Assembly: GCA_027603945.1 (NCBI GenBank)
Contig: JADIIU010000136.1
Location: 1-33,392, forward strand
DNA from: Terramyces sp. JEL0728
Taxonomy: Eukaryota; Chytridiomycota; Chytridiomycetes; Rhizophydiales; Terramycetaceae
DNA: 33,392 nt
Direction of reading: 5' to 3'
Shown here: positions 15,282-25,247 of the stretch, piece by piece
How positions within the stretch are numbered: the stretch's first letter is position 1
How the letters are laid out: every line of letters starts with the position of its first letter
Program-made: the position numbers and the translations under genes
The notes under the pieces: generated by a model
Seen by the model: only the letters and a program-made list of their open reading frames with translations
The model's database searches: none
Told to the model about the DNA's origin: nothing

Positions 15282-15953
15282 TTATTTCAAATAGTCGTCA
15301 ATCTCCTTGTCTAATAGATAATTTACTTCTTTCAGAGGTACTACATTACCCTTGAAGCGTTTGCTGAAACAATCAAGCAGCACTGGCAATACTTGTTGAA
15401 CATTAACGTCATGTCCAGCTTCCTTGGACACTGATGTTACGGATTTGCCTTTCAACCCGCAAGCAACGATATGGTCAAACCACTTCAAATCGGTGTTGCA
15501 ATTTAAAGCGAATCCATGGCTTGTAATATGTCGCTGTACTTGAATTCCAATTGCCGCTATTTTTCTATCGTCTATCCAAATCCCTGTGTGCTCTGTTGAT
15601 TTTGCACGGATTCCAAACTGCTTGCATGCATCGATAACAGTATTTTGGAGCGTACAAATGTAATCTCGAACTCCAAGGTTGAATTGGGTCAAGTCCAGGA
15701 TAGGGTAGCCAACTAATTGGCCCGGCCCATGGAAAGTTATTTCTCCACCTCGCTTTGTCGAGTAGAATTCTGCTCCCAGTGCAATGAGGTCTTTGCTATC
15801 GTACTCTTTTATTCTCCTTCCGACAGTGTACGTTGGTGAATGTTCCAGTAAGAGAAGTGTATTTGTCCTTTTATTTTTTACGAGGTGCTCCTGAAGCTCA
15901 AGCACTTTGCCGTAAGACTGTTTTCCCTTCAAAAGCTTCCAGCCAATATTCAT
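15282..15953 (-). CDS. LIPT2: Lipoyl(octanoyl) transferase (LipB/LIPT2)
   Basis: A single exon of 223 aa. The enzyme transfers octanoate from acyl carrier protein to lipoyl domains in mitochondria, the first step of lipoate cofactor assembly. Motifs seen: LLLEHSPTYTVGRR, RGGEITFHGPGQLVGYPIL, TGIWIDDRKIAAIGIQVQR (catalytic-site Lys in RKIAAIG), the SHGFALNCNTDL segment, and VACGLKGKSVTS with the acyl-accepting Cys. It is similar in length to bacterial LipB, and no clear presequence is visible before MNIGWKLLKGKQSY, so import signals are weak or internal. A likely substrate, the lipoyl-Kgd4 protein at 24535-25247, is in the same window. AAAATTTTTT at 15959-15968 lies just upstream of the start. 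AATAAA overlaps the stop. Confidence 0.95.
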   Translation of the reverse strand: MNIGWKLLKGKQSYGKVLELQEHLVKNKRTNTLLLLEHSPTYTVGRRIKEYDSKDLIALGAEFYSTKRGGEITFHGPGQLVGYPILDLTQFNLGVRDYICTLQNTVIDACKQFGIRAKSTEHTGIWIDDRKIAAIGIQVQRHITSHGFALNCNTDLKWFDHIVACGLKGKSVTSVSKEAGHDVNVQQVLPVLLDCFSKRFKGNVVPLKEVNYLLDKEIDDYLK

Positions 15954-16017
15954 CTGGGAAAATTTTTTAATTAAAAATCTAGAAATACAGCTTTATTGTA
16001 GTCGAATAGTTACAAGG

Positions 16018-24534: not shown

Positions 24535-25247
24535 ATGAAAAGGTTTTTTAGTTCAACCATACTTGCAAGAGGTACTCATATTTAAAACAGCTGCAAAAAC
24601 CATCAACACTCCTCAAATGGGAGAGTCAATCACAGAAGGAACCCTCACTCAATGGCACAAGAAAATCGGTGATTTCGTAAAAAGGGATGAACAAATTGCG
24701 ACAATAGAAACTGATAAAGTATTTTTATTTAATCCAGATTGATGTCCAAGTAAATTCTCCCGAATCCGGGGTTTTATTGGAGTTATTTAGCAGTGAGGGC
24801 GATACAGTTTCGGTTGGCGGACAATTATTTAAAATTGATACAGATAAGGCGGGTGATTCAGCACAGCAATCAGAATCAGGAAAGCAACCAGAATCAGGAA
24901 AGCAATCTCAACCAGAAACAGAAAAGCAGTCTCAATCCGAGCCAGTCAAGAAAGAAACCCAAAAAGTAAAGGAAACCAAAGAGCAATTGAACCCAGCATC
25001 AAAAAAAGATGACTTGCATGCACATCGCACTCCATTAATTAAATTCTTGGGTCCAAGAAAACTGCTTTGGCAAAACAGTGGACAAACTGCAAAACCTCCT
25101 GCACAAAATGCTACAGTCAAGAATGGAACAAGAACTATTCAATACGAATCATTAGCTCAGTTGCCAAAGCGGTTCCAGCCAATTACATTTAGTTCGGCTG
25201 AAATGGAAGCTATCGACAATGGTGGAGCAGACCACAGACTCAAATAA
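24535..25247 (+). CDS. Lipoyl-domain/Kgd4 (MRPS36) fusion, 2-oxoglutarate dehydrogenase component
   Basis: Three exons (24535-24571, 24591-24718, 24738-25247) give 224 aa. Residues 1-13 ([13 protein letters not shown]) look like a mitochondrial presequence. Residues 15-92 are a lipoyl domain ([16 protein letters not shown]; lipoyl Lys55 in [17 protein letters not shown]) most like that of E2o (DLST/Kgd2). Residues 93-148 are a Gln/Glu/Lys linker with ESGKQ-type imperfect repeats. Residues 151-224 match Kgd4/MRPS36: [13 protein letters not shown], then [20 protein letters not shown] and EMEAIDNGG near the end. Kgd4 tethers E3 (dihydrolipoamide dehydrogenase) to the E2o core. No peripheral-subunit-binding domain or acyltransferase core is present. 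The last exon alone contains both the second half of the lipoyl domain and the Kgd4 motifs, so the fusion does not depend on splicing. LIPT2 in this window could modify it. Confidence 0.9.

What the first reader, a model, noticed from the sequence alone, without database searches (positions are those of the whole stretch)
24535..25247. Fusion of an E2o-type lipoyl domain to the E3-recruiting subunit Kgd4/MRPS36
One 224-residue protein joins a presequence, a complete lipoyl domain (ETDKIDVQV, Lys55), a flexible Q/E/K linker and the whole Kgd4 signature ([32 protein letters not shown]). Known Kgd4/MRPS36 proteins are small tethers that bind E3 and the E2o core and carry no lipoyl arm. Here the tether would have its own swinging arm, functionally like the E3-binding protein (PDHX) of pyruvate dehydrogenase but built from different parts. 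It might supplement, or even replace, the lipoyl arm of E2o in this organism. I do not know of a described example. The last exon alone encodes both halves, so this is not a splicing artefact.
Basis: partly seen in the sequence, partly recalled or inferred. Interest (0 to 1): 0.88.

Follow-up and report, generated by a model that had tools for sequence, protein, structure and literature searches.

The report
Lipoyl arm fused to Kgd4 tether
In some chytrid fungi, and apparently independently in diatoms and a brown alga, the small protein thought to tether one enzyme of a central mitochondrial energy-making complex carries its own extra swinging chemical arm, a combination I did not find described in the papers searched.

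Summary
Window 24535-25247 encodes 224 residues: a presequence-like start, an E2o-type lipoyl domain (E 4e-20, Lys55), a linker of about 60 residues, and Kgd4/MRPS36 (E 9e-7, above cut-off). The named match is Terramyces sp. JEL0728, a chytrid. It is the only Kgd4 found in the draft genome. E2o keeps its own lipoyl domain and shows no E3-binding domain, so the fused arm adds to E2o's arm and does not replace it. The fusion is not unique: 111 of 214 listed hits, this gene included, are lipoyl-Kgd4 proteins, in two more Rhizophydiales genera, diatoms and a brown alga among others. Trees of both halves reject one clade of all fusions (AU p 0.0006 and 6e-5). The fungal lipoyl domain looks copied from a fungal E2o gene: same intron place and phase, dN/dS about 0.12. 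Best reading: a lipoyl-bearing E3-binding protein of oxoglutarate dehydrogenase, laid out like PDHX from unrelated parts, invented at least twice. Lipoylation, binding and function are inferred.

The parts
24535..25247 (+). LD-KGD4 fusion gene, 3 exons: 24535-24571, 24591-24718, 24738-25247; 224 aa
   Evidence: translation after removal of two GT-AG introns; relatives in Boothiomyces and Globomyces
24535..24595 (+). presequence-like N-terminus [14 protein letters not shown], residues 1-14 (exon 1 and start of exon 2)
   Evidence: sequence; targeting inferred, no predictor run
24572..24590 (+). intron 1, 19 nt
   Evidence: GT...AG, restores frame; not tested with RNA; lies outside the relative-based spliced alignment
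24599..24836 (+). lipoyl domain, residues 16-88 (interrupted by intron 2)
   Evidence: PF00364 E 4.3e-20; six-frame hit from 24599
24716..24718 (+). codon of lipoyl lysine Lys55 in ETDK
   Evidence: sequence; ETDK kept in 111 of 111 fusions
24719..24737 (+). intron 2, 19 nt, phase 0 after ETDK, same place and phase as in this genome's E2o gene
   Evidence: spliced alignments of both genes
24837..25016 (+). Q/S/E/K/P-rich linker, residues 89-148
   Evidence: weak conservation: 19 of 44 aligned residues identical in Boothiomyces, against 66 of 68 in the LD
25023..25061 (+). Kgd4 N-terminal motif [13 protein letters not shown] (residues 151-163), inferred E3-binding part
   Evidence: alignments; N-terminus of MRPS36 contacts E3 in PMC9974300 (passages, section)
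25101..25229 (+). Kgd4 C-terminal region (residues 177-219), with [10 protein letters not shown] 197-206 and EMEAIDNGG 210-218; inferred E2o-core-binding part
   Evidence: PF10937; C-terminus of MRPS36 contacts E2o in PMC9974300

Best explanation
It is an E3-binding subunit of the mitochondrial 2-oxoglutarate dehydrogenase complex that has gained its own lipoyl swinging arm. The protein enters mitochondria and is lipoylated on Lys55 by the machinery that lipoylates E2o. Its C-terminal Kgd4 part docks on the E2o core and the PLIKFLGPR part holds the E3 dimer. A flexible linker of about 60 residues lets the lipoyl domain reach E3 beside it, and E1o and E2o nearby. The order lipoyl domain - E3-binding part - core-binding part is that of E2p and PDHX, but the last two parts are Kgd4 and not PSBD plus acyltransferase fold. 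In fungi it arose when the 5' part of an E2o gene was copied in front of KGD4; a separate event gave the same architecture in stramenopiles. If Kgd4 is present in few copies per complex, as reported for Chaetomium, the likely gain is not many more arms but one arm placed beside each E3, which would take electrons from E2o arms by dithiol-disulfide exchange, or hold E3 in place. Shown: domains, gene model by sequence, single Kgd4 found, E2o with its own arm and no PSBD, conservation, fusions not one clade. Inferred: import, lipoylation, both dockings, electron relay.
For: Domains over cut-off. Only one Kgd4 found in 15.0 Mb with two kinds of query. E2o of the same genome: sucB equivalog with LD and acyltransferase, no PF02817 at E<=1; PF02817 matches only on contigs C19, C4 and C107, not on the E2o contig C15. 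111 of 214 listed hits (the gene's own public protein P0001 included) carry both domains, LD first in 111 of 111, linker 36-68 aa (median 51, n=107), ETDK in 111 of 111. Fungal stand-alone Kgd4 profile: 110 of 112 fusion tails at E<1e-3, 0 of 76 control tails. LD 57 of 72 identical to own E2o, dN 0.17, dS 1.46 by NG86. Shared intron position and phase. LD tree: fungal fusions group with fungal E2o (98/91); one clade of all fusions rejected, p 0.0006. Kgd4 tree: fungal fusions one clade (99/93) next to Spizellomyces-type and Rhizophlyctis stand-alone Kgd4 (98/98); one clade of all fusions rejected, p 6e-5. 13 of the 111 are listed under MMETSP transcript names, so the fused frame is in RNA there. 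AlphaFold2 model of the Globomyces relative: LD blocks at pLDDT 92-97; PDB matches are lipoyl and biotin-carrier domains, among them the OGDH lipoyl domain 1ghj.
Against: No expression, lipoylation or binding data for any fusion. Kgd4's role in human cells is not settled: MRPS36 added by transfection did not raise OGDHC activity (reported in PMC8146983, passage). The LD could be an unlipoylated docking module. dS of 1.46 is near saturation and the second method (YN00) failed, so the ratio is rough. The genome is a draft searched in six frames exon by exon, which missed the intron-split E2o lipoyl domain, so absence of a second Kgd4 is not proof. The trees have only 77 and 84 columns; the LD tree does not itself join all fungal fusions (p 0.105 for one clade). 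The Kgd4 tree alone would also fit one early fusion with many losses.
Confidence: 0.75

Rival explanations
1. The lipoyl domain is a structural or docking module, not a working arm: lipoylated or not, it binds E1o or E3 to help assembly and carries no flux.
For: PMC10203282 discusses 'unloaded' LDs as anchors and reports sub-stoichiometric Kgd4 (about 4 per 24 E2o), so few extra arms would add little flux (passages).
Against: ETDK lysine motif kept in 111 of 111 listed fusions, in line with use as a lipoyl carrier; dN/dS about 0.12.
Confidence: 0.3
2. One ancient LD-Kgd4 fusion in early eukaryotes, later split to give the small Kgd4 of animals and most fungi, with the lipoyl domain overwritten by E2o sequence in each lineage (gene conversion).
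For: The fusion is found in two distant groups; stand-alone and fused forms are mixed among the stramenopile-type rows.
Against: One clade of fusions is rejected on the LD (p 0.0006) and on Kgd4 (p 6e-5); the Kgd4 result alone would also fit losses, the LD result needs overwriting. Stand-alone Kgd4 in Spizellomyces and kin, Rhizophlyctis, Mortierella, Coemansia and others would each need a loss.
Confidence: 0.1
3. Gene-model or assembly artefact: two neighbouring genes read as one.
For: Two introns of 19 nt are needed for the full protein; no RNA of this locus was available.
Against: LD second half and Kgd4 lie in one open frame; same architecture in Boothiomyces (72% identity) and Globomyces (47%); 13 MMETSP-named fusions elsewhere; 20-22 nt introns in E2o.
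Confidence: 0.02
4. The fused arm serves another complex (PDHC, BCKDHC or glycine cleavage) rather than OGDHC.
For: E3 is shared between complexes (established knowledge).
Against: LD is of E2o type (57 of 72 identical to E2o, 22 to E2p, 24 to E2b); Kgd4 is an OGDHC subunit in the literature (passages); the E2 genes on C19 and C4 have their own PSBD.
Confidence: 0.05

Closest known systems
Kgd4/Ymr31 = MRPS36 = E3BPo, E3-recruiting subunit of OGDHC
   Same: Kgd4 N-terminal PLIKFLGPR motif and C-terminal PF10937 region; only Kgd4 found in the genome
   Different: stand-alone Kgd4 is small (83 aa in Spizellomyces; 135 aa in Chaetomium) and has no lipoyl domain; this has one plus a linker
PDHX / E3BP of the pyruvate dehydrogenase complex
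   Same: lipoyl domain - linker - E3-binding part - core-binding part, in that order (roles of the Kgd4 parts inferred from PMC9974300; PDHX layout from general knowledge)
   Different: no PSBD (PF02817) and no acyltransferase fold (PF00198) at E<=1; E3- and core-binding parts of another family; OGDHC instead of PDC
E2o / DLST / KGD2
   Same: lipoyl domain 57 of 72 identical to the genome's own E2o, intron at the same place and phase
   Different: no catalytic domain; the public name 'E2 component' for it is misleading
E2o with two lipoyl domains in other chytrids and in Pinguiococcus
   Same: another way to give OGDHC more lipoyl arms
   Different: the second domain sits on E2o itself

Membership tests
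Kgd4/MRPS36 | PF10937 over curated cut-off | tested here: met
   30.9 bits against 22
Kgd4/MRPS36 | N-terminal PLIKFLG[PK]R motif and C-terminal EMEAI.xGG motif (as seen in the alignments) | tested here: met
   residues 151-163 and 210-218; alignments and identities with stand-alone Kgd4; fungal stand-alone profile E 3.8e-22
Kgd4/MRPS36 | recruits E3 and binds the E2o core | not testable with these tools
   needs pull-down or structure
Biotin/lipoyl domain (E2o type) | PF00364 over cut-off with lipoyl lysine in a TDK hairpin | tested here: met
   71.8 bits against 22.1, Lys55; modelled LD fold in the Globomyces relative
Biotin/lipoyl domain (E2o type) | is lipoylated | not testable with these tools
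   needs mass spectrometry or anti-lipoyl blot
E3BP/PDHX | peripheral subunit-binding domain PF02817 | tested here: not met
   no match at E<=1
E3BP/PDHX | acyltransferase-fold core domain PF00198 | tested here: not met
   no match at E<=1
E2o (DLST) | catalytic acyltransferase domain PF00198 | tested here: not met
   absent from the fusion; present in the E2o on C15

The most novel reading that the evidence does not exclude
Eukaryotic OGDHC has at least twice re-created a complete, removable E2 arm: with no PSBD on E2o and Kgd4 binding E3, fungi and stramenopiles each fused a lipoyl domain to Kgd4. Each E3 then carries its own lipoyl relay that collects electrons from many E2o arms. The repeated invention would show that arm-to-arm electron transfer to a few E3 dimers is a limiting step of OGDHC.
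Probability: 0.4. Interest if true: 0.88.

Novelty: new variant of a known kind. Interest (0 to 1): 0.77.

Why it matters
Kgd4/MRPS36 was recognised as the E3 adaptor of OGDHC only recently, and why eukaryotes use a separate small tether is open. A widespread form with its own lipoyl arm, found in fungi and in diatoms and probably evolved more than once, is a natural experiment: it makes the value of an arm next to E3 testable by one lysine mutation, supports the idea that Kgd4 is a PSBD in trans, and corrects several database entries that call these proteins an E2 component.

Tried and rejected
Replacement of the E2o arm by the fused arm: rejected, E2o keeps its LD. A second stand-alone Kgd4 in the genome: none found. 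One clade of all fusions: rejected by AU tests on both halves (p 0.0021). One clade of the fungal fusions: not resolved by the LD tree (p 0.105; 0.2), though their Kgd4 halves form one clade (99/93). One clade of the stramenopile-type fusions: not rejected on the LD (p 0.266; 0.248); on Kgd4 stand-alone and fused forms are mixed. Whether the own fusion LD is nearest to the own E2o LD: not resolved (p 0.445; 0.511). Solved structures of Kgd4 by sequence: none at E<=1. PMC2705460 (oomycete fused proteins), main text searched for four terms: lipoyl 0, S36 0. Batrachochytrium and oomycetes could not be judged from the names in the listings.

Limits of counts: hits are the listed best 120 of each protein search (224, 2877 and 973 hits in all; only 7997 candidates were scored), so 111 of 214 is not a census, and it includes P0001, which is this gene's own public protein. 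Most hits are unnamed metagenome or transcript clusters. Of the 22 rows that I called SAR fusions in the trees, eight carry an organism name or code in the listings (Pylaiella, Nitzschia, Fragilariopsis, Mayamaea, Fistulifera, Cylindrotheca, and two cut-off or coded names that I read as Pseudo-nitzschia and Staurosira); the label of the rest is mine, by similarity, as is the label of unnamed rows in the fungal fusion, fungal E2o, other E2o and stand-alone groups. From the LD tree I left out 7 rows: own E2p and E2b, P0059 (two), P0103, P0067 and P0078. P0238 dropped out of the Kgd4 tree because my motif pattern missed it; P0039, P0047, P0052 and P0060 were not put in it; P0286, a fragment that starts inside a lipoyl domain, was counted there as a fungal fusion by my reading. 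The profile behind the 111 count (A2) was built from 11 of these proteins, so repeats the test with fungal stand-alone Kgd4 only; there 1 of 76 control tails scores E 0.0075. The YN00 estimate of dN/dS failed. A 63-nt second 'intron' in the fusion linker proposed by my spliced aligner is a multiple of three inside a variable linker and I read it as an alignment gap.

Full report
What is there. The window is contig C136 of a 15.0-Mb, 231-contig draft genome. The public protein P0001 of Terramyces sp. JEL0728 is identical to residues 22-224 of the gene's product; Terramyces is a chytrid of the Rhizophydiales. At 24535-25247 (+) one gene with two 19-nt GT-AG introns encodes 224 residues. Pfam gives Biotin_lipoyl at 16-88 (E 4.3e-20) and Kgd4-YMR31 at 177-219 (E 9.3e-7), both above their cut-offs; no PSBD (PF02817) and no acyltransferase (PF00198) match appears at E<=1. 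The Kgd4 N-terminal motif [13 protein letters not shown] lies at 151-163, before the Pfam match. A profile made only from 17 fungal stand-alone Kgd4 proteins finds the tail of this protein at E 3.8e-22, 110 of 112 fusion tails at E<1e-3, and 0 of 76 control tails of lipoyl proteins without Kgd4 at that level (1 of 76 at 0.0075). P0001 lacks the first exon and is named an E2 component, though it has no catalytic domain.

The rest of the complex in this genome. PF10937 and a Spizellomyces Kgd4 query each find only this locus. Acyltransferase matches fall in three loci. The one on C15 is E2o (TIGR01347 sucB equivalog, 496.6 bits against 378.65) with a complete lipoyl domain and catalytic domain and no PSBD. 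C19 and C4 read as E2p and E2b (by eye) and carry PSBDs; a third PSBD on C107 may be the PDC E3-binding protein (not followed). OGDH-type E1 C-terminal domains are on C220 and C8 and three flavoprotein dimerisation domains, candidates for E3, on C201, C36 and C191. So E2o here would need E3 recruitment in trans, and the fused arm comes on top of the E2o arm.

Where the lipoyl domain came from. It is 57 of 72 identical to the own E2o domain, 22 of 72 to E2p and 24 of 72 to E2b. The own E2o gene has five introns of 20-22 nt in a spliced alignment, one of them after ETDK in phase 0, exactly where the fusion has its second intron. Three listed environmental fusions show in-frame inserts at the same site (P0012, P0039, P0047), which I read as retained introns. 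Codons of the two domains give dN 0.17 and dS 1.46 (NG86), which points to purifying selection, with the caution that dS is high and a second method failed. Between Terramyces and Boothiomyces the lipoyl domain is 66 of 68 and the N-terminal Kgd4 region 15 of 16 identical, the linker 19 of 44 aligned.

Not alone, and probably not once. Among 214 distinct proteins listed in two searches, 111 (P0001 included) carry both domains, the lipoyl domain first in all 111, with a linker of 36-68 residues (n=107) and ETDK in all 111. Named ones include Boothiomyces macroporosus and Globomyces pollinis-pini (Rhizophydiales), the diatoms Nitzschia inconspicua, Fragilariopsis cylindrus, Fistulifera solaris and Mayamaea pseudoterrestris (diatoms by general knowledge), and the brown alga Pylaiella littoralis (names); 13 of the 111 bear MMETSP transcript names. 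Stand-alone Kgd4 is listed for Spizellomyces, Geranomyces, Gaertneriomyces, Powellomyces, Rhizophlyctis, Mortierella and relatives, Coemansia, Basidiobolus, Mucor, Rhizopus, and the pelagophyte Aureoumbra. The lipoyl tree (64 rows, 77 columns) groups the fungal fusions with fungal E2o (98/91) and leaves the stramenopile-type fusions among other E2o domains; one clade of all fusions is rejected (AU p 0.0006; 0.0021 with one wrong residue). The Kgd4 tree (51 rows, 84 columns) makes the fungal fusions one clade (99/93) next to Spizellomyces-type and Rhizophlyctis stand-alone Kgd4 (98/98), and rejects one clade of all fusions (p 6e-5). The Kgd4 result alone could also come from one early fusion with many losses; the lipoyl result would then need the domain to be overwritten by E2o sequence in each lineage. 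I therefore infer at least two fusions. Within the stramenopile-type set, stand-alone forms are mixed with fused ones, so further gains or losses are likely.

How it probably works. In PMC9974300 (passages and section 2.3 read) the C-terminus of MRPS36 contacts E2o and the N-terminus E3, and eukaryotic E2o lacks the PSBD. Placing these roles on the fusion gives lipoyl domain - linker - E3-binding part - core-binding part, the order of E2p and PDHX. In Chaetomium, Kgd4 (called E3BPo because it acts like PDC E3BP) is present at about 4 copies per 24 E2o (PMC10203282, passages). If that holds here, the extra arms are few but each sits beside an E3 dimer; I therefore favour a relay or anchor role at E3 over a mere rise in arm number. 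This step is inference. A model of the Globomyces relative (mean pLDDT 73.3, pTM 0.42) has a confident lipoyl domain (blocks at 92-97), a low-confidence linker and a short C-terminal helix; PDB matches are lipoyl and biotin-carrier domains, among them the OGDH lipoyl domain 1ghj.

What is known. Papers that hold Kgd4 or MRPS36 with related terms were searched (searches list 30 of 957 and 20 of 162) and passages of PMC9974300, PMC10203282, PMC8146983, PMC7050145, PMC8421416 and PMC13311838 seen (in the last two papers Kgd4 or MRPS36 occurs only in the reference list); none of what I saw describes a lipoyl domain on Kgd4. The library holds open-licence papers only, and the 2014 Kgd4 paper is not held, so a description elsewhere is possible.

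Verdict. It is a Kgd4 with a new arm: works like PDHX, is not a member of that family. Novelty: new variant of a known kind, with probable repeated origin as the most telling fact.

Noticed in passing
window 15282-15992 (-): A lipoyl(octanoyl) transferase (LipB/LIPT2) gene, a step of lipoate attachment, lies about 9 kb from the fusion on the same contig; probably coincidence.
   Followed up: partly
window 24572-24590, 24719-24737; L011 (E2o on C15): The seven introns inferred in two genes are only 19-22 nt, very short for a fungus as far as I recall; related environmental fusions show inserts of similar size at the same site. One paper search gave only a listing.
   Followed up: partly
P0121, P0123, P0125, P0148 (Siphonaria, Obelidium, Physocladia, Entophlyctis); P0127 (Pinguiococcus): E2o with two lipoyl domains in other chytrids and in Pinguiococcus (Pfam for P0123 and P0127): another way of adding arms to OGDHC.
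   Followed up: partly
G000:C107:42257-42361: Third PSBD in the genome, perhaps the E3-binding protein of the pyruvate dehydrogenase complex.
   Followed up: no
P0288 (Aureoumbra lagunensis): Stand-alone Kgd4 with a presequence-like start in a pelagophyte; in the Kgd4 tree it sits next to the fused P0102 (97/90), so the fused state may have been gained or lost within that group.
   Followed up: partly
window 24535-25247; P0001, P0002: Public annotation names these fusions '2-oxoglutarate dehydrogenase complex E2 component' although no catalytic domain is listed for them.
   Followed up: yes
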